Below are positions 10,027-38,582 of a DNA stretch of 38,582 nt, one piece after another; within the stretch, counting starts at the first letter, position 1; each line of letters opens with the position of its first letter. The notes below the pieces were generated by a model. That model was not told the DNA's origin, searched no databases, and saw nothing but the letters and a program-made list of their open reading frames with translations. The DNA is from Bacteroidota bacterium (GTDB taxonomy: Bacteria; Bacteroidota; Bacteroidia; Chitinophagales; S012-47). Where the stretch lies: positions 1-38,582 of the forward strand of contig JAJRWN010000065.1 in NCBI GenBank assembly GCA_024276745.1, in the 5' to 3' direction. Made by a program: the position numbers and the translations under genes.

Positions 10027-10794
10027 ATGAATCCGGATTTATCAGTAGTAGTGATTAGTCAAAATGCTGAACGGCATTTCGAAGCTTGTTTAAATGCTTT
10101 GAAAAAAGTAAGCGATGATGTAGTGATTGTAGATCATTATTCTGAAGACGCCACCGTAGAGATTGCAAAAGCAGCAGGATGTCGTGTTTTTTCAAAAAAA
10201 TGGACCGGATATTCTGCCGGTAAAAACTTTGGAAACGCCAAAGCAAAGCATGACTGGATTTTATCTATTGATGCTGATGAAGTACTTTCTGATGAATTAA
10301 TCCAATCGATCAATTCCTTAGAACCGGATGATAAGCAATGTGTTTATGCCATCAATTGTTTGAGCAGCTATTGTGGTAATTGGGTAAAACACGGGTCCTG
10401 GTATCCCGATTGGCATATCCGCTTGTTCAACCGCTTAGAGGTATCATGGAATCTGGAGGAAGTACACGAAACGCTTGCTTTACCTGCCGGTGTTTCGATC
10501 GTTAAATTGAAAGGCTCTTTATATCATTATACCGTTGATACAATTGAACAGCACCAATTAAAAATCGAACATTACGCTTCCTTAGGGGCTCAGAAGATGT
10601 ATGCTGCCGGCAGAAAGCCATCAATAATAATAAAATTTCTAAATCCTCCTTTTCGCTTTATGATTGATTATTTTTTTCGTGGAGGAATTTTAGACGGCAA
10701 AGCCGGTTGGCATATTGCAAGGCTTACTGCTAAAGAAAAATGGTTGAAATATGCTAAACTGCAACAATTAATTAAGCAGAAGAATGCGCTTTAA
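10027..10794 (+). CDS. Family 2 glycosyltransferase (WaaE/KdtX-like)
   Basis: The 255-residue protein has a GT-A fold: N-terminal nucleotide-sugar binding segment SVVVISQNAE, the DxD metal site in IDADEVLS (residues 82-84), and the pattern CGNWVKHGSWYPDWHIRLF seen in WaaE/KdtX-type lipopolysaccharide-core glucosyltransferases and their Bacteroidota relatives. It follows the O-antigen-ligase-like gene by 20 nt and is probably in the same transcript. Donor and acceptor sugars are not known. Its last 23 nt overlap the 3' end of the convergent glycosyltransferase-TsaC fusion gene. Confidence 0.88.
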   Translation: MNPDLSVVVISQNAERHFEACLNALKKVSDDVVIVDHYSEDATVEIAKAAGCRVFSKKWTGYSAGKNFGNAKAKHDWILSIDADEVLSDELIQSINSLEPDDKQCVYAINCLSSYCGNWVKHGSWYPDWHIRLFNRLEVSWNLEEVHETLALPAGVSIVKLKGSLYHYTVDTIEQHQLKIEHYASLGAQKMYAAGRKPSIIIKFLNPPFRFMIDYFFRGGILDGKAGWHIARLTAKEKWLKYAKLQQLIKQKNAL

Positions 10795-12406
10795 TAAAGC
10801 TGCGAAGCGGCTCGTTCATTCGCCCCTCTCTGATTAGTGTAAGTCGATTGTGTTCTATCCGTACGATTGTTGATGCTTTTTTGAATGTCTGAGCGCTTTC
10901 CTCGTGCAGTATAAAATCAACTTGATTTTTAATCACCTGATCTACTTCTTTCATTGAGCTTGCTGCAGCATTATGACTGAAATTCGCGCTTGTTGAAAGC
11001 AATGGCCGGCCTAATGTTTCAATCAATTGACGGATTGATGCTGAAGCCGGTATCCTAATGGCAATACTGTTGTCAGGACCTGTAATTGTTTTATTTAACT
11101 GCCGGGAAGCGGTAAAAATCAGGGTAATAGCCATGTTTCCGGATAAATCCCAGATTTTAAAGGCTATATCGGGAATTTGACGGGTATATTGCTGAACCAT
11201 TCGAACATTGCTGCACAAGACAATAAATCCTTTGTCAGGTTTTCGTTCTTTGATTTCAATGATTCTTTGAACGGCATCCGGATGATTTACTGCACAGGCC
11301 AGTCCGGGGATGGTATCGGTATCCATTAATAATACGGCACCTACATGTAGAAACTTAAGTGCTTCTTGATGATAATCGCTGACGGTATAAATAGGAGCGG
11401 TATCGTGATGGAAGTCTATGGCAGTATAAACAGACCTGGCTTTTATATGCAGTGCACAAGAAAAATGTTTTTCCGGACACGATGAGTAACCATGTAATCC
11501 ACACGGGCGGCAATCGAGCTTGGTATCTGTTTCCACTATCTTGTTTTGATCAGATAAAGGACCGAAACCGAATTGGGGTACAGTAGAACAGTATATGGTC
11601 GTAACCGGACTATTGACCCCTGATGCAAGATGTGTAGCGGCACTGTCGTTGCTAAACACCCGGACGGCTTTTTCCAGCAATGCTGCGGTTTGCAGAAGAT
11701 TTAGTTTACCGCATAGATTGCTAATCTGCGGATGAGCATCAAGCAGTTGTTTGGCAATGGCCGTGTCGGCTTTGCTACCAATGATATACACATTGAATTT
11801 TGAGGGTAATCTCCACAGCAATGATTTCCATTTTTCGACAGACCATTGTTTTGTAGCCCAAACCGATGCAGGGGCTACGACAAAATAAGGGCTACCCGAT
11901 TGATAGGTTTTAACGGCATCGTATTCATCATTTCCGGGGTATAGTTCCGGCCTGACGGGTGCTATGATTTTTTCTTCGAGTAAAGATAGATTACGCTGTA
12001 CTTCATGAATAATTTTACCTTGTTCCGAATCGGGAATACGATGGTTTACTTTTACGGATGCCAAAAAGGAGAAAGGGTTTTTATCAAAACAAATTTTTTT
12101 ATCCGTTTTGATAAATGCCATAATTAATCCACTTGAAGCAAAACGATGAACATTATAAACAGTATCGAAACGATAGTTTCTTAGTTTTCTGATGAGTTGG
12201 TATAAAGAGACCTGTTTATGGTGGCTTTTATCCCAAGTCCAAACCCGGTTAACGGCCGGATGATTTTTTAATAAAATTTCATTGCCCTTCCTGACCAGGA
12301 AATGTATATCGGCTTGCGGATATTTTTTGCGAAGTTGCTGTAATAATGGAAGTGCAAGTATCACATCGCCAATAAAGGCTGTTTGAATGACAAGTATTTT
12401 TCGAAT
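10772..12406 (-). CDS. Fusion: family 9 glycosyltransferase (heptosyltransferase-type) + TsaC/Sua5 threonylcarbamoyl-AMP synthase
   Basis: One uninterrupted frame carries two unrelated enzymes. Residues 1 to about 335 are a GT9 (ADP-heptose:LPS heptosyltransferase-like) domain: RKILVIQTAFIGDVILALP at the N-terminus with the catalytic Asp (D14 here), and FVVAPASVWATKQW and FSNDSAATHLASG in the donor-binding half. After a short linker, residues ~345-540 are a YrdC/Sua5 domain: DTDTIPGL near 362, IKERKPDKG near 385, SIAIR near 445 and STSAN near 470. That domain makes threonylcarbamoyl-AMP for tRNA t6A37. The conserved GT9 start lies upstream of the first GTG (12364), and no ATG/GTG/TTG precedes it before the in-frame TAG at 12434-12436; ATT at 12406 sits where Met is expected (544 residues). 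The gene follows infB by 22 nt. Confidence 0.85.
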   Translation of the reverse strand: MRKILVIQTAFIGDVILALPLLQQLRKKYPQADIHFLVRKGNEILLKNHPAVNRVWTWDKSHHKQVSLYQLIRKLRNYRFDTVYNVHRFASSGLIMAFIKTDKKICFDKNPFSFLASVKVNHRIPDSEQGKIIHEVQRNLSLLEEKIIAPVRPELYPGNDEYDAVKTYQSGSPYFVVAPASVWATKQWSVEKWKSLLWRLPSKFNVYIIGSKADTAIAKQLLDAHPQISNLCGKLNLLQTAALLEKAVRVFSNDSAATHLASGVNSPVTTIYCSTVPQFGFGPLSDQNKIVETDTKLDCRPCGLHGYSSCPEKHFSCALHIKARSVYTAIDFHHDTAPIYTVSDYHQEALKFLHVGAVLLMDTDTIPGLACAVNHPDAVQRIIEIKERKPDKGFIVLCSNVRMVQQYTRQIPDIAFKIWDLSGNMAITLIFTASRQLNKTITGPDNSIAIRIPASASIRQLIETLGRPLLSTSANFSHNAAASSMKEVDQVIKNQVDFILHEESAQTFKKASTIVRIEHNRLTLIREGRMNEPLRSFIKAHSSA

Positions 12407-33287: not shown

Positions 33288-35006
33288 TCAGAAAGTTTCT
33301 ACCTGATGAACATAAGTACCTTTTTCGTCATAAAGATGAACTGCACAAGCTATGCAAGGATCAAAGGAATGAATGGTCCTTAAAACTTCAAGTGGTTTTT
33401 CCGGATCATCCACCGGAGTTCCAATAAGTGAAGCTTCATAAGCAGAACGTTGTCCTTTTGCATCGCGTGGTGATGCATTCCAGGTACTGGGTACCACCAA
33501 TTGGTAATTATTAATTTTTTTGTCTTTTATTTTAATCCAATGTGCCAGAGCACCCCGTGGTGCTTCGGTCATACCTACTCCTTGAGCTTCATCGGGCCAG
33601 GTATCCGGATCAAATAATTCGGTTGTGGCCGTACGGGTATCACCATTTTTGATATTTGCCATCAGTTGATTATAAAATTCCATACTCCAGCCGGTCATCA
33701 ATTGAGTCTCAAGCCCACGTGCCGCTGTGCGTCCAAGGGTAGAAAACAAGGCTTCTACCGGTACGTCAAGAGCTGTTAAAACACCTGTAACCGCTTCGAC
33801 ATATTCATCCTTACCTGAGGCAAAACCAACCAACATTCTGGATAACGGACCAACTTCCATAGCATTTCCTTTCCAGCGTGGTGTTTTCATCCAGCTATAC
33901 TTACCTTCTACATTTAGTTGATCGTAGGGTGGATTGGGTCCGGTAAAGTTTAATTTGGTTTCGCCCTCAAAGGGATGTTTACCGGTTTCGTCACCTTCTT
34001 CATATTCGTACCAGGAGTGGGTCACAAATTCTTGAATTTCTTCTAAATCGGCCGGATTGATTTCTTGTACTTCATTCAAATTACGATTCATAATGACACC
34101 GCGTGGAAACTTAAAACTTGAGGGGTCATTATATCCGTTCATCGGCAAATCGCCATAAACCAGGTAATTGGACAAACCACCACCGATAGCAGCCCAATCT
34201 TTATAAAAAGAAGCTACAGCCAGCAAATCAGGTATATAAACCTGATTGATAAAATCCTGTGCCTGGCCAAGCAAAGTACCTACATAAGCAAGCCGTTCGG
34301 CATTGATGGCATTATTTTCATCGAGATTGATAGAACAAGGCACACCACCTACCAAATAATTCGGATGTGGGTTTTTACCACCAAAAATGGTATGAATTTT
34401 TACAATTTCTTTTTGCCATTCCAGGGCTTCCAAATAGTGGGCTACAGCCATCAGATTGGCTTCGGGTGGTAATTTATATGCATTATGTCCCCAATACCCA
34501 TTGGCAAAAATACCAAGCTGCCCACTTTCAACAAATTTGCTTAATCTTTTTTTCAAATCGGAAAAATAACCCGGAGAGCTGTTAGGCCATTTCGAAATAC
34601 TTTGTGCCAAGGTGGAAGTAGCCGCAGGATCAGCACTTAATGCCGAAACCACATCAACCCAGTCAAGGGCATGCAAATGATAAAAATGAACGACATGATC
34701 TTGCATATATTGAGCAGCAAACATGAGGTTTCTAATCATTTCGGCATTAGGCGGAACAATCATACCCAATGAATTTTCGACACAACGCACCGATGCCAAT
34801 GCATGCACTGTAGTACAAACACCACATACTCTTTCAGTAAATGCCCATGCATCGCGCGGGTCTCGTCCTTTTAAAATAATTTCAATACCCCTGACCATGG
34901 TGCCTGAGCTGTATGCATCAACGACTTTGCCATTTTGAATATCTAATTCTACCCGCAAGTGGCCTTCAATCCGGGTAACGGGGTCAACTACAATTCTATT
35001 TGCCAT
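33288..35006 (-). CDS. hyaB: [NiFe]-hydrogenase large (catalytic) subunit, group 1
   Basis: The 572-residue subunit binds the NiFe(CN)2CO centre. The L1 motif RVCGVC gives C61 and C64, with E14 in TRIEGH, and the L2 motif DPCIACAVH gives C551 and C554. After His557 there is a 15-residue tail, the extension normally removed by a HyaD/HybD-type endopeptidase once nickel is inserted. The protease gene is not in the window. The sequence fits respiratory uptake hydrogenases (HyaB type). It lies 15 nt after the small-subunit gene and 2 nt before the cytochrome gene. Confidence 0.97.
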   Translation of the reverse strand: MANRIVVDPVTRIEGHLRVELDIQNGKVVDAYSSGTMVRGIEIILKGRDPRDAWAFTERVCGVCTTVHALASVRCVENSLGMIVPPNAEMIRNLMFAAQYMQDHVVHFYHLHALDWVDVVSALSADPAATSTLAQSISKWPNSSPGYFSDLKKRLSKFVESGQLGIFANGYWGHNAYKLPPEANLMAVAHYLEALEWQKEIVKIHTIFGGKNPHPNYLVGGVPCSINLDENNAINAERLAYVGTLLGQAQDFINQVYIPDLLAVASFYKDWAAIGGGLSNYLVYGDLPMNGYNDPSSFKFPRGVIMNRNLNEVQEINPADLEEIQEFVTHSWYEYEEGDETGKHPFEGETKLNFTGPNPPYDQLNVEGKYSWMKTPRWKGNAMEVGPLSRMLVGFASGKDEYVEAVTGVLTALDVPVEALFSTLGRTAARGLETQLMTGWSMEFYNQLMANIKNGDTRTATTELFDPDTWPDEAQGVGMTEAPRGALAHWIKIKDKKINNYQLVVPSTWNASPRDAKGQRSAYEASLIGTPVDDPEKPLEVLRTIHSFDPCIACAVHLYDEKGTYVHQVETF

Positions 35007-35021
35007 TTTAATTCCTCCAAC

Positions 35022-36116
35022 TTATTTTTCGTTAATAACAATATCTTCATTTTTTATCCGCTTCCGTTTGGCAACATTGGTAGCCAGGAAATGAGCTGCA
35101 ATGCCTGCACCGGTTGCGATGCCCAGGCCAAGTCCGATTTTATCGGCATTTGATTCAATACCAAAACCGGGGAAGCTGGGTAAATGTTGATAGAAAGGAC
35201 CATTATCCCAAAAGCCTTCTTCACTGCAACCTATACAGGGATGACCGGATTGAATCGGATAGCTGGTACCGTTGTTCCAGCGTATTACACCGCATGCGTT
35301 ATAAGTAACCGGTCCTTTACAACCGACTTTATATAGACAATATCCTTTTTTTGCATTTTCATCATCGAATGATTCAACAAACAAACCGGCATCATAATTA
35401 GGTCTGCGGTAACAAGTATCGTGTACCCTGCGGGAATAAAAAGCTTTGGGACGGCCCATGCGGTCGAGTTGAGGCATCCGGCCAAAGGCAAGAATATGTA
35501 CAATTACTCCGGCCATAACTTCACCTATCGGAGGACATCCCTGCACATTAATGACTGTTTTTCCTTTCAAAACTTTATGCACGGGTTTGGCTCCGGTCGG
35601 ATTAGGTTTTGCTGCTTGTACACATCCTGCCGAAGCACAATTACCCCAGGCAATAATGGCTTTGGCACCTTCGGCAGCTTCTTTCACAATTTCTAATGCA
35701 CTCCGGCCTCCAATGCAGCAATAAGCTTCATTTTCGGTGGGTATCGAACCTTCTACCAACATCACATATTCACCATGATATTTTTCCATAGTGGCATGCA
35801 ATGCTTCCTCTGCCTGATTGCCGGCAGCTGCCATTAAGGTTTCGGTATAATCAAGTGATATTTTATCCAAAATAATATCTGCTACAATGGGATGTGAAGA
35901 ACGGATAAACGATTCGCTGCAGCAAGTACATTCCTGAAAATGAAACCATACAACCGGTAAGCGCGGATTATTTTCCAACGCTTCGACCACTTGGGCTACT
36001 CCGCTTGATTCCAGCCCCAGATAAGCAGCCATCATACTACAAAAACGTAGAAAATCTCTACGTGAATGACCGGCTTCCCGAATCTCCTCATACAAGGTTT
36101 TTTGTTTAATTGCCAT
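35022..36116 (-). CDS. hyaA: [NiFe]-hydrogenase small subunit, oxygen-tolerant type
   Basis: The 364-residue Fe-S subunit has a Tat signal (SRRDFLRFC, 18-26), so the folded complex is exported to the periplasm, and a C-terminal membrane helix at about 327-346. Proximal-cluster cysteines are C63, C66, C160 and C194, plus the two extra ones, C65 (CTCC instead of CTGC) and C165 (CASAGC instead of ..GG). These match Cys19 and Cys120 of E. coli Hyd-1, which support the redox-flexible [4Fe-3S] cluster. Distal ligands are H232, C235, C260 and C266; medial [3Fe-4S] ligands are C275, C294 and C297. It should oxidise H2 in the presence of oxygen. Confidence 0.97.
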   Translation of the reverse strand: MAIKQKTLYEEIREAGHSRRDFLRFCSMMAAYLGLESSGVAQVVEALENNPRLPVVWFHFQECTCCSESFIRSSHPIVADIILDKISLDYTETLMAAAGNQAEEALHATMEKYHGEYVMLVEGSIPTENEAYCCIGGRSALEIVKEAAEGAKAIIAWGNCASAGCVQAAKPNPTGAKPVHKVLKGKTVINVQGCPPIGEVMAGVIVHILAFGRMPQLDRMGRPKAFYSRRVHDTCYRRPNYDAGLFVESFDDENAKKGYCLYKVGCKGPVTYNACGVIRWNNGTSYPIQSGHPCIGCSEEGFWDNGPFYQHLPSFPGFGIESNADKIGLGLGIATGAGIAAHFLATNVAKRKRIKNEDIVINEK

Positions 36117-36140: not shown

Positions 36141-36350
36141 TTAATTTAATGTCGAATGCTTCTGAATATCTTCTATCAATAATGTCCCTTTCACCAAAAC
36201 TCTTTCTCCCAAATAATGTCCTTGCGTGTTGTTGGCGGTTAACATAATGGTTTTGGAATCGCAATAAACGCGAATGCTTTTTTTGCCATCATGTTCCAAT
36301 ATTTCAACAACTCGTCCGCTAAGTTCAATCTGATGCGTTTTGTTTTCCAA
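36141..36350 (-). CDS. Small protein of unknown function, first gene of hydrogenase operon
   Basis: This 69-residue product is one I do not recognise. It is predicted to be nearly all beta strands (QIELSGRVVEILEHDG, SIRVYCDSKTIMLT, GERVLVKGTLLIEDIQ), the look of a small beta-barrel such as an OB or TOBE/Mop-like fold. It has one Cys, no signal peptide and no membrane segment. The start must be TTG 36350: no in-frame ATG or GTG lies upstream within the transcript. It sits 22 nt after the predicted sigma-54 start site and 24 nt ahead of hyaA, so it is co-expressed with the hydrogenase. A chaperone or assembly role is conceivable but only from context. Confidence 0.7.
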   Translation of the reverse strand: MENKTHQIELSGRVVEILEHDGKKSIRVYCDSKTIMLTANNTQGHYLGERVLVKGTLLIEDIQKHSTLN

Positions 36351-36382
36351 TATGCCACCATTAAGAGAACAGCAATCCTTTA

Positions 36383-36398
36383 GGCAACGGCCGTGCCA
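36383..36398 (-). promoter_or_regulatory. Sigma-54 (-24/-12) promoter of the hydrogenase operon
   Basis: The minus strand reads TGGCACGGCCGTTGCC: TGGCAC, 5 nt, TTGC, identical to the sigma-54 consensus. With GG at -25/-24 and GC at -13/-12, transcription would start at about 36372, 22 nt before the TTG of the 69-codon gene. A sigma-54 activator gene lies immediately upstream. Confidence 0.85.
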
Positions 36399-36417
36399 TA
36401 TTGCTGTATTAGCAATA
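36399..36417. repeat. Inverted repeat TATTGCT-N5-AGCAATA beside the -24 box
   Basis: A perfect 7-bp inverted repeat abuts the -24 element, covering about -27 to -45. It is too close to the promoter for a normal activator site and might be a repressor or accessory-factor site. Confidence 0.4.
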
Positions 36418-36426
36418 CAAAAGAAA

Positions 36427-36439
36427 CAAGTCCTTGATT
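36427..36439 (-). promoter_or_regulatory. IHF-consensus site between enhancer and sigma-54 promoter
   Basis: The minus-strand AATCAAGGACTTG fits WATCAANNNNTTR at every position and lies at about -55 to -67, where IHF-type bending sites sit in sigma-54 promoters. Whether this organism has a true IHF or a related HU-like protein is not visible here. Confidence 0.5.
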
Positions 36440-36498
36440 ATGATAATTATATAAAGACAGTAAAATGATGGCCTGTAGTGAAAGGAATAAAACATCTG

Positions 36499-36529
36499 TG
36501 GATTTCCGTTAATCGCTTGCGGAAATCCG
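36499..36529. promoter_or_regulatory. Candidate enhancer (UAS): two palindromes 21 bp apart
   Basis: GGATTTCCG (36500-36508) and CGGAAATCC (36520-36528) are perfect inverted copies; each is itself near-palindromic (CGGA-N2-TCCG), with centres 21 bp apart on the same helix face. The pair is centred near -142 from the predicted sigma-54 start site. It also starts 7 nt past the activator's stop codon and could act as that gene's hairpin terminator, though a T-tract does not follow directly. Confidence 0.6.
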
Positions 36530-36535
36530 TAATCA

Positions 36536-37531
36536 CTAAACCTGGCCATGATTGGATGAATCCTGGCTTTGCAGATGACCGTTAAGTTTATACTTTTTAA
36601 GTTTATCCCTAAAGGTGGAAAGATTCATTTTAAGTTTACGGGCAGCATCGCTTTGATTGGCACTTGATTCAGACATGGCTTGCATAATCAGATTTTTCTC
36701 TACACAATCAACCACTTCTGAAAGAGTCATTTCTCCTTTCCCGAAACAAACCGAACATGCCTGAACAATTCTGCTTAAGCTATTATCATTTCTAAATTCA
36801 TCAGGCAAATCTTTTATATTTATTTCGCCATCGGTAAATAGGCTGGCCCGCTGAATGACATTTCTTAATTCGCGTACATTACCGGGCCAATGATAGGCAA
36901 TTAAAGCCTGCAGTGCCTGATTGGATACACTTATGCTGCGTCCGGAGGCAAATCGTTTTATAAAATGATTGACCAACAATGGAATATCGTCCCGTCTTTC
37001 CCTTAAGGGTGGTATTTCGATGGTCACCACATTGACCCGGTATAAGAGATCGGCACGAAAAAGTTGTCGTTTTACCATTTCTTTTAAAGATACTTTAGAA
37101 GCTGATATAAGCCGTATGTCAATGGGAATAGATTTTGTTCCACCGATACGCATCAGTTCTCTTGATTCGAGTACCCGTAGCAATTTTGTTTGAATATTCA
37201 GGGGTACATCATCAATATCATCAAGAAAAATACTGCCGGTATCGGCTAATTCAAAAAGACCTTTTTTGGTGTTTACGGCATTGGTAAAAGCTCCTCTTTC
37301 GTGGCCGAACAATTCGCTGGCCATTAAATCAGCCGGTAATGCGGCTAAGCTGATTTTTATCAGTGGATTGCTGCTCCGCGGGCTGCTTCGATGAATATAT
37401 TCTGCAAATATTTCTTTCCCTACTCCGGTTTCACCCACCAACAACACAGAAGAATCAGACTCGAGCACTTTTCTCAATTTCTCGAGAATAGCTCGCATTT
37501 TTTCATTCTGGGTGATGATACTTACGGACAT
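36536..37531 (-). CDS. Sigma-54-dependent transcriptional activator without sensor domain
   Basis: The 331-residue enhancer-binding protein starts directly with the AAA+ domain, as in PspF. Walker A GETGVGKE lies at 33-40, the sigma-54 contact loop reads GAFTNA (80-85) rather than GAFTGA, Walker B is IFLDDIDD near 101-108, the arginine-finger region LFRADLLYR is at 157-165 and WPGNVREL at 215-222. The C-terminus (about 270-315) is a Fis-type helix-turn-helix. A CSVC pair (C259, C262) lies in the linker. It follows hypE by 10 nt and lies directly upstream of a sigma-54 promoter for the hydrogenase genes, which makes it their likely activator. Confidence 0.92.
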   Translation of the reverse strand: MSVSIITQNEKMRAILEKLRKVLESDSSVLLVGETGVGKEIFAEYIHRSSPRSSNPLIKISLAALPADLMASELFGHERGAFTNAVNTKKGLFELADTGSIFLDDIDDVPLNIQTKLLRVLESRELMRIGGTKSIPIDIRLISASKVSLKEMVKRQLFRADLLYRVNVVTIEIPPLRERRDDIPLLVNHFIKRFASGRSISVSNQALQALIAYHWPGNVRELRNVIQRASLFTDGEINIKDLPDEFRNDNSLSRIVQACSVCFGKGEMTLSEVVDCVEKNLIMQAMSESSANQSDAARKLKMNLSTFRDKLKKYKLNGHLQSQDSSNHGQV

Positions 37532-37541
37532 TATTTTTGCT

Positions 37542-38582
37542 TTAACAGATTCTGGGTAATTGTTCGCCCGAAATCATATCGAGAATCCGGGTACTTCCGA
37601 TTCCTGTTTCCATGGTAACCATACCTTTATAATCTGTACATACTTCGCCAATAACAGCGGCATTTTTACCGGCTGGATTTTGCTGCATCATTTTCAATAC
37701 GGCATCCGCTTCTTCAGGAGGAACAAAAACCAGTATTTTTCCTTCATTGGCTATATACATGGGATCGAGTCCTAGTATTTCACAAGCTCCTTTCACTTCT
37801 TCCCGGATAGGAATTTTATCTTCAAAAAGCTTAATGCCAATATTGGCTGTTGCAGCAATTTCGTTGGTGGCACTGGCAATACCTCCTCTTGTAGGATCGC
37901 GTAATACGTGCAAATTCCGGCTTACCGAAAGGATGTCGTCCAGCAAATGATTTAAAGCAAATGAATCGCTTTGAATATGGGTTTCAAACGTAAGACCTGC
38001 TCTTGATGACATGATACATACACCATGGTCGGCTACATAACCATTGATCAAGATGACATCACCCGGTTTGCAATAACGTGGATTGATGTCAAGTCCTTCA
38101 TATACTTGACCAATACCGGCTGTATTAATAAAAATTTTATCTCCTTTTCCTTTATCCACGACTTTGGTATCACCGGTTACTATTTGCACCCCTGCTTTAT
38201 CGGCTGCTGTTTTCATAGATTGAACCACACGCCATAAATCTTGCATTGGAAAACCTTCCTCAATGATAAATGCTGCGGAGATATAGAGTGGTTTTGCTCC
38301 ACAACAGACCAAATCGTTGACGGTTCCGTTTATGGCCAAATCGCCTATATTGCCACCGGGGAAAAATATGGGTTGCACTACATAGGAGTCAGTCGTAAAG
38401 GCCAGTTTTTGATGCCCCATTTGAAAAACAGCTCCATCGTGTGCCTGATTCAACAAATCATTATCAAAATGCTTGATAAACATATCGCCAATCAAACGGT
38501 TTGATAAAGAACCTCCCCCTCCGTGAGCAAGCAATACGCGTTCGTATTCCGAAATAGGAATCGGACAGTTTAAATTAAAATC
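37542..38582 (-). CDS. hypE: Hydrogenase maturation protein HypE (5' end outside window)
   Basis: HypE dehydrates the carbamoyl group on its C-terminal Cys to cyanide for the NiFe centre. The C-terminus PRIC is intact, and the body shows LAHGGGGSLSNRLI, FTTDSYVVQPIFFPGGNIGDLAINGTVNDL, VTGDTKVV, LRDPTRGGIASATNEIA and IANEGK, all diagnostic. The frame stays open to the window edge and includes NCPIPISEYERVLLAHGGGG, so the real start is beyond base 38582; the TTG at 38534 is internal. Only a few residues should be missing. Other hyp genes are probably upstream in the same transcript. Confidence 0.96.
   Translation of the reverse strand, partial: DFNLNCPIPISEYERVLLAHGGGGSLSNRLIGDMFIKHFDNDLLNQAHDGAVFQMGHQKLAFTTDSYVVQPIFFPGGNIGDLAINGTVNDLVCCGAKPLYISAAFIIEEGFPMQDLWRVVQSMKTAADKAGVQIVTGDTKVVDKGKGDKIFINTAGIGQVYEGLDINPRYCKPGDVILINGYVADHGVCIMSSRAGLTFETHIQSDSFALNHLLDDILSVSRNLHVLRDPTRGGIASATNEIAATANIGIKLFEDKIPIREEVKGACEILGLDPMYIANEGKILVFVPPEEADAVLKMMQQNPAGKNAAVIGEVCTDYKGMVTMETGIGSTRILDMISGEQLPRIC

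What the first reader, a model, noticed from the sequence alone, without database searches (positions are those of the whole stretch)
36372..36398. Full-consensus sigma-54 promoter in front of a Bacteroidota hydrogenase operon
The sequence shows TGGCAC-N5-TTGC on the minus strand, 22 nt ahead of the first gene, with a sigma-54 activator gene just upstream. No other full TGGCAC-N5-TTGC site was noticed in the window. Sigma-54 control of [NiFe]-hydrogenases is established in Proteobacteria (for example HoxA in Ralstonia). Its use in this phylum for an oxygen-tolerant enzyme is, as far as I know, little described.
Basis: partly seen in the sequence, partly recalled or inferred. Interest (0 to 1): 0.72.

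Follow-up and report, generated by a model that had tools for sequence, protein, structure and literature searches.

The report
Sensor-less sigma-54 switch for a hydrogenase
The proposed sigma-54 promoter is real, and it belongs to a conserved control module (an activator without a sensor domain, a paired binding site for it, the promoter and a small partner protein) that sits in front of oxygen-tolerant hydrogenase genes in Bacteroidota and some neighbouring phyla, where such control is hardly described.

Summary
TGGCACGGCCGTTGC is at 36384-36398 (-). It is the only full match in the window and in the 2.3-Mb genome, and rpoN is present. The motif alone is not rare genome-wide (about 2.4 expected, 1 found). 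What makes it convincing is position and conservation. Hydrogenase loci with an orthologue of the adjacent activator keep a GG-N10-GC site in front of the operon, and loci without it do not (Mann-Whitney p = 5e-8).

The activator is an AAA+/Fis-HTH protein with no sensor domain in all 24 orthologues inspected. Just after its stop codon lies a tandem palindrome, [T/A]RCGGAWWTCCGYA twice, 21 bp apart. This is a very likely enhancer: it recurs upstream of the promoter in 37 loci, follows hyaA rather than the activator when the two are separated, and is unique in the genome. One complete genome keeps activator, enhancer, promoter and small protein with no [NiFe]-hydrogenase at all.

Best reading: a sigma-54 hydrogenase switch of PspF-like (trans-controlled) logic, not HoxA-like. 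The signal and the small protein's role remain inferred.

The parts
37542..38582 (-). hypE (hydrogenase maturation), cut by the window end; gene upstream of the activator
   Evidence: TIGR02124 hypE, 468 bits, above cut-off
36536..37531 (-). Sensor-less sigma-54 activator: AAA+ domain and Fis-type HTH, sigma-54 contact loop GAFTNA, no N-terminal regulatory domain
   Evidence: PF00158 7.8e-63, HTH_8 5e-9; all orthologues inspected start at the AAA+ domain
36518..36531 (-). Enhancer (UAS) half 1: TACGGATTTCCGCA
   Evidence: Conserved tandem palindrome; coordinates; tandem unique in own genome
36497..36510 (-). Enhancer (UAS) half 2: AACGGAAATCCACA, 21 bp (two helical turns) from half 1
36427..36439 (-). 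Sequence fitting the IHF consensus, AATCAAGGACTTG, between enhancer and promoter; speculative
   Evidence: exact fit, but in only 3 of 18 loci of the long-gap class
36399..36417 (-). Perfect dyad TATTGCTAATACAGCAATA abutting the -24 element; no conserved counterpart found
36384..36398 (-). -24/-12 sigma-54 promoter TGGCACGGCCGTTGC; predicted start of transcription near 36372
   Evidence: conservation
36141..36350 (-). Small protein, 69 aa, TTG start; first gene of the operon; predicted beta-rich, weakly HypC-like without the N-terminal Cys
35022..36116 (-). hyaA/hoxK-type [NiFe]-hydrogenase small subunit with oxygen-tolerance cysteines
   Evidence: TIGR00391 498 bits; PDB best match R. eutropha HoxK
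33288..35006 (-). hyaB, [NiFe]-hydrogenase large subunit
   Evidence: PF00374 799 bits; the only [NiFe] large subunit in the genome
32602..33285 (-). hyaC, b-type cytochrome subunit
   Evidence: TIGR02125 168 bits, above cut-off

Best explanation
The site is the -24/-12 promoter of the small-ORF-hyaABC operon, used by RNA polymerase with sigma-54. The upstream gene encodes its dedicated activator, which binds the tandem palindrome at 36497-36531 (centre about 116 bp upstream of the -24 GG), forms its AAA+ oligomer and remodels the closed complex through DNA looping. Shown by sequence: promoter, rpoN, activator domains, tandem site, their co-conservation, and the tandem's uniqueness in the genome. 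Inferred: that the activator binds the tandem, and that its activity is set in trans, because it has no sensor domain, as in PspF/PspA and HrpS/HrpV. The 69-aa protein, first gene of the operon and nearly always found with this activator, is the best candidate for that trans regulator (probably feedback); the sign of its effect and the signal (H2, redox, oxygen or energy state) are unknown.
For: Full-consensus site and rpoN. Best -24/-12 score upstream of hyaA is higher in 23 activator-linked loci than in 54 others, p = 4.7e-8. Tandem palindrome: p = 1.7e-10 for a near-identical split; 37 loci with spacing 21-22 bp, mostly followed by a GG-N10-GC site at about 50 or about 110-127 nt (window 98), 62% scoring >= 22 against 7% of null stretches. 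In a set fetched by activator protein alone, 8 of 9 loci with hyaA have the tandem, and in L173, L175 and L176 it sits at hyaA although the activator lies elsewhere or convergent. In L118 and L111 it occurs twice, each time ahead of a sigma-54-like site. The exact tandem occurs once in the own genome, at this spot, with none in the reversed control, and only at hyaA in G493, G249, G199 and G213. Activator is sensor-less in all 24. Small protein: 8 strong matches in 396 genomes, all among the 13 with the activator, including G330, which has no [NiFe]-hydrogenase.
Against: No transcript, footprint or mutant data. The tandem consensus was first read by eye from the same loci that give the p-value; the held-out loci were found independently but may include some of the same species. 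The -24/-12 weights follow a consensus recalled from memory. The best -24/-12 site is weak in some loci (L166, L171, L176; none clear in L177). The activator's loop is GAFTNA rather than GAFTGA (variants throughout the family). No structure was obtained for the small protein, and some loci with the activator (L055, L117, L173) have none. Gene neighbourhood does not prove interaction.
Confidence: 0.88

Rival explanations
1. The motif is a chance match and the operon is transcribed from a housekeeping Bacteroidota promoter (-33/-7 type) or by read-through from hypE and the activator gene.
For: About 2.4 full matches are expected by chance in the genome. The activator gene and operon lie on one strand only 185 nt apart.
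Against: No -33/-7 site with both elements in the intergenic stretch. Site and tandem are co-conserved across families and placed at hyaA even where the activator is not upstream.
Confidence: 0.05
2. The inverted repeat after the activator stop is only a transcription terminator of the hyp-activator operon, not an enhancer.
For: In the window the two halves can pair as a 9-bp stem just after the stop codon.
Against: Each half is itself a palindrome of conserved sequence at fixed 21-22 bp spacing, not merely a stem; no T-run follows directly; in L173, L175 and L176 and in the second copies of L118 and L111 it is not downstream of the activator but ahead of a sigma-54-like site.
Confidence: 0.07
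3. The small protein is a hydrogenase maturation factor of the HypC/HupF/HoxL kind, protecting or delivering the active site, and has nothing to do with regulation.
For: Weak HupF_HypC matches in 3 of 22 members (best E 0.015); collinear profile match to HypC (hhalign probability 58-65%); it lies in the hydrogenase operon.
Against: It lacks the N-terminal Cys that is invariant in the HypC sequences of the same loci; many loci also have an ordinary hypC; it stays with the activator in G330, which has no [NiFe]-hydrogenase, and in G453, which lacks this type; five related hydrogenase loci without the activator lack it.
Confidence: 0.3
4. Control is HoxA-like: a kinase and a hydrogen-sensing regulatory hydrogenase act on the activator.
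For: Same class of enzyme, same sigma factor, activator beside the hydrogenase genes.
Against: No receiver domain; no second [NiFe] large subunit in the 90% complete genome.
Confidence: 0.04

Closest known systems
HoxA-controlled hydrogenase promoters of Cupriavidus necator (Ralstonia eutropha)
   Same: Sigma-54 promoter and an NtrC-class activator in front of an oxygen-tolerant membrane-bound hydrogenase; small subunit closest to HoxK
   Different: HoxA is a response regulator working with the kinase HoxJ and a regulatory hydrogenase (PMC10073562); here the activator has no receiver, no regulatory hydrogenase was found, and the enhancer and a small co-encoded protein are of their own kind
Sensor-less enhancer-binding proteins PspF and HrpR/HrpS
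   Same: AAA+ and HTH only, no cis regulatory domain; PspF and HrpS are controlled in trans by a partner, PspA or HrpV (PMC7057263)
   Different: Target is a hydrogenase operon; AAA+ domain closer to NtrC1/ZraR-type domains than to PspF; the candidate partner passes no cut-off of any named family
HypC/HupF/HoxL family
   Same: Similar size and collinear weak profile match to the small protein
   Different: No N-terminal MC motif; present without hydrogenase in G330

Membership tests
Sigma-54 (-24/-12) promoter | GG-N10-GC core with TGGCAC-N5-TTGC consensus | tested here: met
   Exact at 36384-36398; in 34 accepted sites GG is invariant and GC complete in 27, though the scoring favours the core
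Sigma-54 (-24/-12) promoter | rpoN in the genome | tested here: met
   Sigma54_DBD 189 bits, G000:C102
Sigma-54 (-24/-12) promoter | Upstream enhancer for an AAA+ activator, roughly 100-150 bp upstream | tested here: met
   Tandem palindrome centred 116 bp upstream of the -24 GG, conserved; binding itself not tested
Sigma-54 (-24/-12) promoter | Transcription start about 12 nt past the GC, rpoN-dependent | not testable with these tools
   Needs 5'-end mapping
Bacterial enhancer-binding proteins | AAA+ sigma-54 interaction domain with Walker motifs, GAFTGA-type loop and Fis HTH | tested here: met
   GETGVGKE, DDID; loop GAFTNA, i.e. a variant of GAFTGA
Sensor-less enhancer-binding proteins (PspF/HrpRS-like logic) | No N-terminal regulatory domain | tested here: met
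   At most a few dozen codons before the AAA+ domain in all 24
Sensor-less enhancer-binding proteins (PspF/HrpRS-like logic) | Control in trans by a partner protein | not testable with these tools
   Only co-occurrence with the small protein
HoxA-type response regulator | N-terminal receiver domain | tested here: not met
HoxA-type hydrogen-sensing cascade | Regulatory hydrogenase in the genome | tested here: not met
   Only one [NiFe] large subunit in the 90% complete genome
Oxygen-tolerant group 1 [NiFe]-hydrogenase | Extra cysteines near the proximal cluster | tested here: met
   ECTCCSES and CASAGCVQ aligned to HoxK; activity in oxygen not tested
HupF/HypC family (small protein) | Curated Pfam score and N-terminal MC motif | tested here: not met
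   0 hits for the window protein, 3 of 22 relatives at best E 0.015; no MC motif

The most novel reading that the evidence does not exclude
Activator, tandem enhancer, sigma-54 promoter and small protein form a portable switch in which the small protein senses a ligand or redox state (or reports hydrogenase assembly) and sets the sensor-less activator; it is a new, two-protein way to control hydrogen uptake in Bacteroidota, Ignavibacteria and Acidobacteriota, and was reused for other genes in G330 after hydrogenase loss or transfer.
Probability: 0.4. Interest if true: 0.75.

Novelty: new variant of a known kind. Interest (0 to 1): 0.62.

Why it matters
Hydrogenase regulation by sigma-54 is known from Proteobacteria, through response regulators that read a hydrogen-sensing hydrogenase. 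This module does the job with a sensor-less activator, a defined tandem enhancer and a small protein of unknown fold, in phyla whose hydrogen uptake in sediments and waters is poorly understood at the level of regulation. Because enhancer, promoter and candidate partner are now mapped to the base, the question of what switches these hydrogenases on can be tested directly in a cultured relative or a heterologous host.

Tried and rejected
(1) An IHF site between enhancer and promoter: AATCAAGGACTTG fits in the window, but only 3 of 18 long-gap loci have such a match; not claimed. (2) The dyad TATTGCTAATACAGCAATA next to the -24 element as the activator site: no conserved counterpart in relatives. 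(3) The inverted repeat after the activator as terminator: rejected, see rivals. (4) Fold of the small protein: two AlphaFold2 models (pLDDT 82-83, pTM 0.51 and 0.58) gave no PDB match at E <= 0.001; a profile search of PDB sequences gave nothing convincing. (5) Closest relatives: apart from the own genome, no activator above 51% identity in 199 genomes of the order, including three of the family, so conservation could not be tested at close range. (6) Scan for other sigma-54 targets in the genome: matches with up to one mismatch exceed the reversed control (89 against 51) but were not sorted into real and chance ones.

Full report
Observation. The minus strand reads TGGCACGGCCGTTGC at 36398-36384. 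A scan of both strands gives one exact match in the window and one in the 2.3-Mb assembly. By composition about 2.4 exact matches would be expected in the genome, 0.04 in the window and 0.0001 on the coding strand of this intergenic stretch, so the evidence must come from place and conservation rather than from the string.

Surroundings. On the minus strand the order is hypE, activator, 185-nt gap, 69-aa ORF, hyaA, hyaB, hyaC. The ORF that relatives keep starts at TTG 36350; a family profile recovers it at E = 9e-22, with the window protein one of the profile's rows. HyaA is nearest to the small subunit HoxK of R. eutropha MBH (454 bits) and carries both extra cysteines of oxygen-tolerant enzymes. 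rpoN is present, and three further genes with complete sigma-54 activator domains lie elsewhere in the genome.

Promoter conservation. Eighty loci related to HyaA were fetched. Twenty-three carry an orthologue of the activator (54-64% identity), in most just upstream of the hydrogenase genes (about 6.5 kb away in L096). With a sigma-54 scoring matrix, loci with the activator just upstream have much better sites in the 450 nt before hyaA than the rest (p = 4.7e-8; L096 was counted with the rest, and several of the rest are contigs that end before the activator could be seen, which makes the test conservative). Most sites lie 250-360 nt before hyaA, i.e. in front of the small ORF.

Enhancer. Reading the stretch between activator and promoter in these loci showed a repeated palindrome. 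Its consensus over 74 copies is [T/A][A/G]CGGAWWTCCG[C/T]A, two copies 21-22 bp apart (the scan allowed those two spacings; one search allowed 20-24). It separates activator loci from the rest (p = 1.7e-10; the consensus was read from the same loci, so this value is optimistic). The distance to the -24 element has two modes, 50-63 nt and 109-127 nt, with the window at 98. The pattern CGGANNTCC-N9-13-CGGANNTCC occurs once in the whole own genome, here, and not at all reversed.

Held-out test. The activator protein alone was used to search 396 genomes of the phylum. Thirteen, the own genome included, have an orthologue. Of the twelve others, nine stretches contain hyaA and eight of these show the tandem in front of it, most with a -24/-12 site about 50 nt on. 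In three (L173, L175, L176) the activator lies elsewhere or on the other strand, and the tandem is at hyaA. In G493, G249, G199 and G213 the exact tandem is found only there. Some of these genomes may be the same species as loci; this was not checked.

Activator. All 24 orthologues inspected begin at or just before the AAA+ domain. The sigma-54 contact loop varies (GAFTNA, GSFTSA, GAYTSA, GAFTGA). Known activators of this build, PspF and HrpS, are controlled in trans by PspA and HrpV (PMC7057263). HoxA, the known hydrogenase activator, is a response regulator fed by HoxJ and a regulatory hydrogenase (PMC10073562). Here there is no receiver and only one [NiFe] large subunit in the genome.

Small protein. 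Twenty-seven relatives were aligned. Members share L-x-G-E-V-x-E and LGD motifs. Pfam gives only weak HupF_HypC hits, and profile comparison with HypC is collinear but weak. The N-terminal Cys of HypC is missing, and many loci have a normal hypC besides. Structure prediction was inconclusive. In 396 genomes it has eight strong matches (E <= 3e-11), all among the 13 with the activator (hypergeometric 9e-14, ignoring relatedness). G330, estimated 100% complete, has activator, tandem, a sigma-54-like site and the small ORF in a row but no [NiFe]-hydrogenase anywhere. G453 has activator and small ORF without a group-1 large subunit. This speaks for a partnership with the activator rather than with the enzyme.

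Mechanism. Shown at sequence level: promoter, sigma factor, activator, tandem site and their co-conservation. Inferred: binding of the activator to the tandem, looping, control in trans, and the small protein's part in it. The signal is unknown.

Literature. The 2025 cross-phylum sigma-54 survey (PMC12316311) names [NiFe]-hydrogenase subunits as sigma-54 targets in Proteobacteria; searches of the held library found no report for Bacteroidota, Ignavibacteria or Acidobacteria. Supplementary tables could not be read, and most subscription journals are not held. The phyla named for related loci are those of the record titles, mostly metagenome bins, and were not checked.

Verdict. The module as a whole is a new variant of a known kind.

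Noticed in passing
L168 (G330:C44:144600-146500): Activator, tandem enhancer, sigma-54-like site and small ORF in a row in a complete genome without any [NiFe]-hydrogenase; followed by genes for apparently secreted proteins.
   Followed up: partly
L166 15353-16981: A second, paralogous sensor-less activator downstream of the hydrogenase operon, with its own tandem site and a TGGCATTTCTATTGC site, in front of a hydrogenase-maturation-protease-like gene and Hdr-like genes.
   Followed up: partly
L174 9666-12161: Tandem site and TGGCACACTGATTGC directly after the activator, ahead of genes that include an HdrA-like protein rather than hyaA.
   Followed up: no
L111 and L118, last 650 nt before hyaA: Two sets of tandem site plus sigma-54-like site: one ahead of the small ORF, one directly ahead of hyaA.
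   Followed up: partly
37 loci: Enhancer-promoter distance has two modes (about 50 and about 110-127 nt); the sites also tend to differ after the GC (TTGCA against TTGCC), perhaps two lineages of the module.
   Followed up: no
window 10772-12364 (-): ORF that reads like a family 9 glycosyltransferase joined to a Sua5/YrdC-like C-terminal part in one frame; could be a real fusion or an assembly join.
   Followed up: no
L044, L046, L053, L060, upstream of hyaA: Related hydrogenase loci without the activator have hypC directly upstream of hyaA and no enhancer or small ORF: a different operon layout for a closely similar enzyme.
   Followed up: partly
window 36399-36417: Perfect 7-bp-arm dyad TATTGCTAATACAGCAATA touching the -24 element; meaning unknown.
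   Followed up: partly
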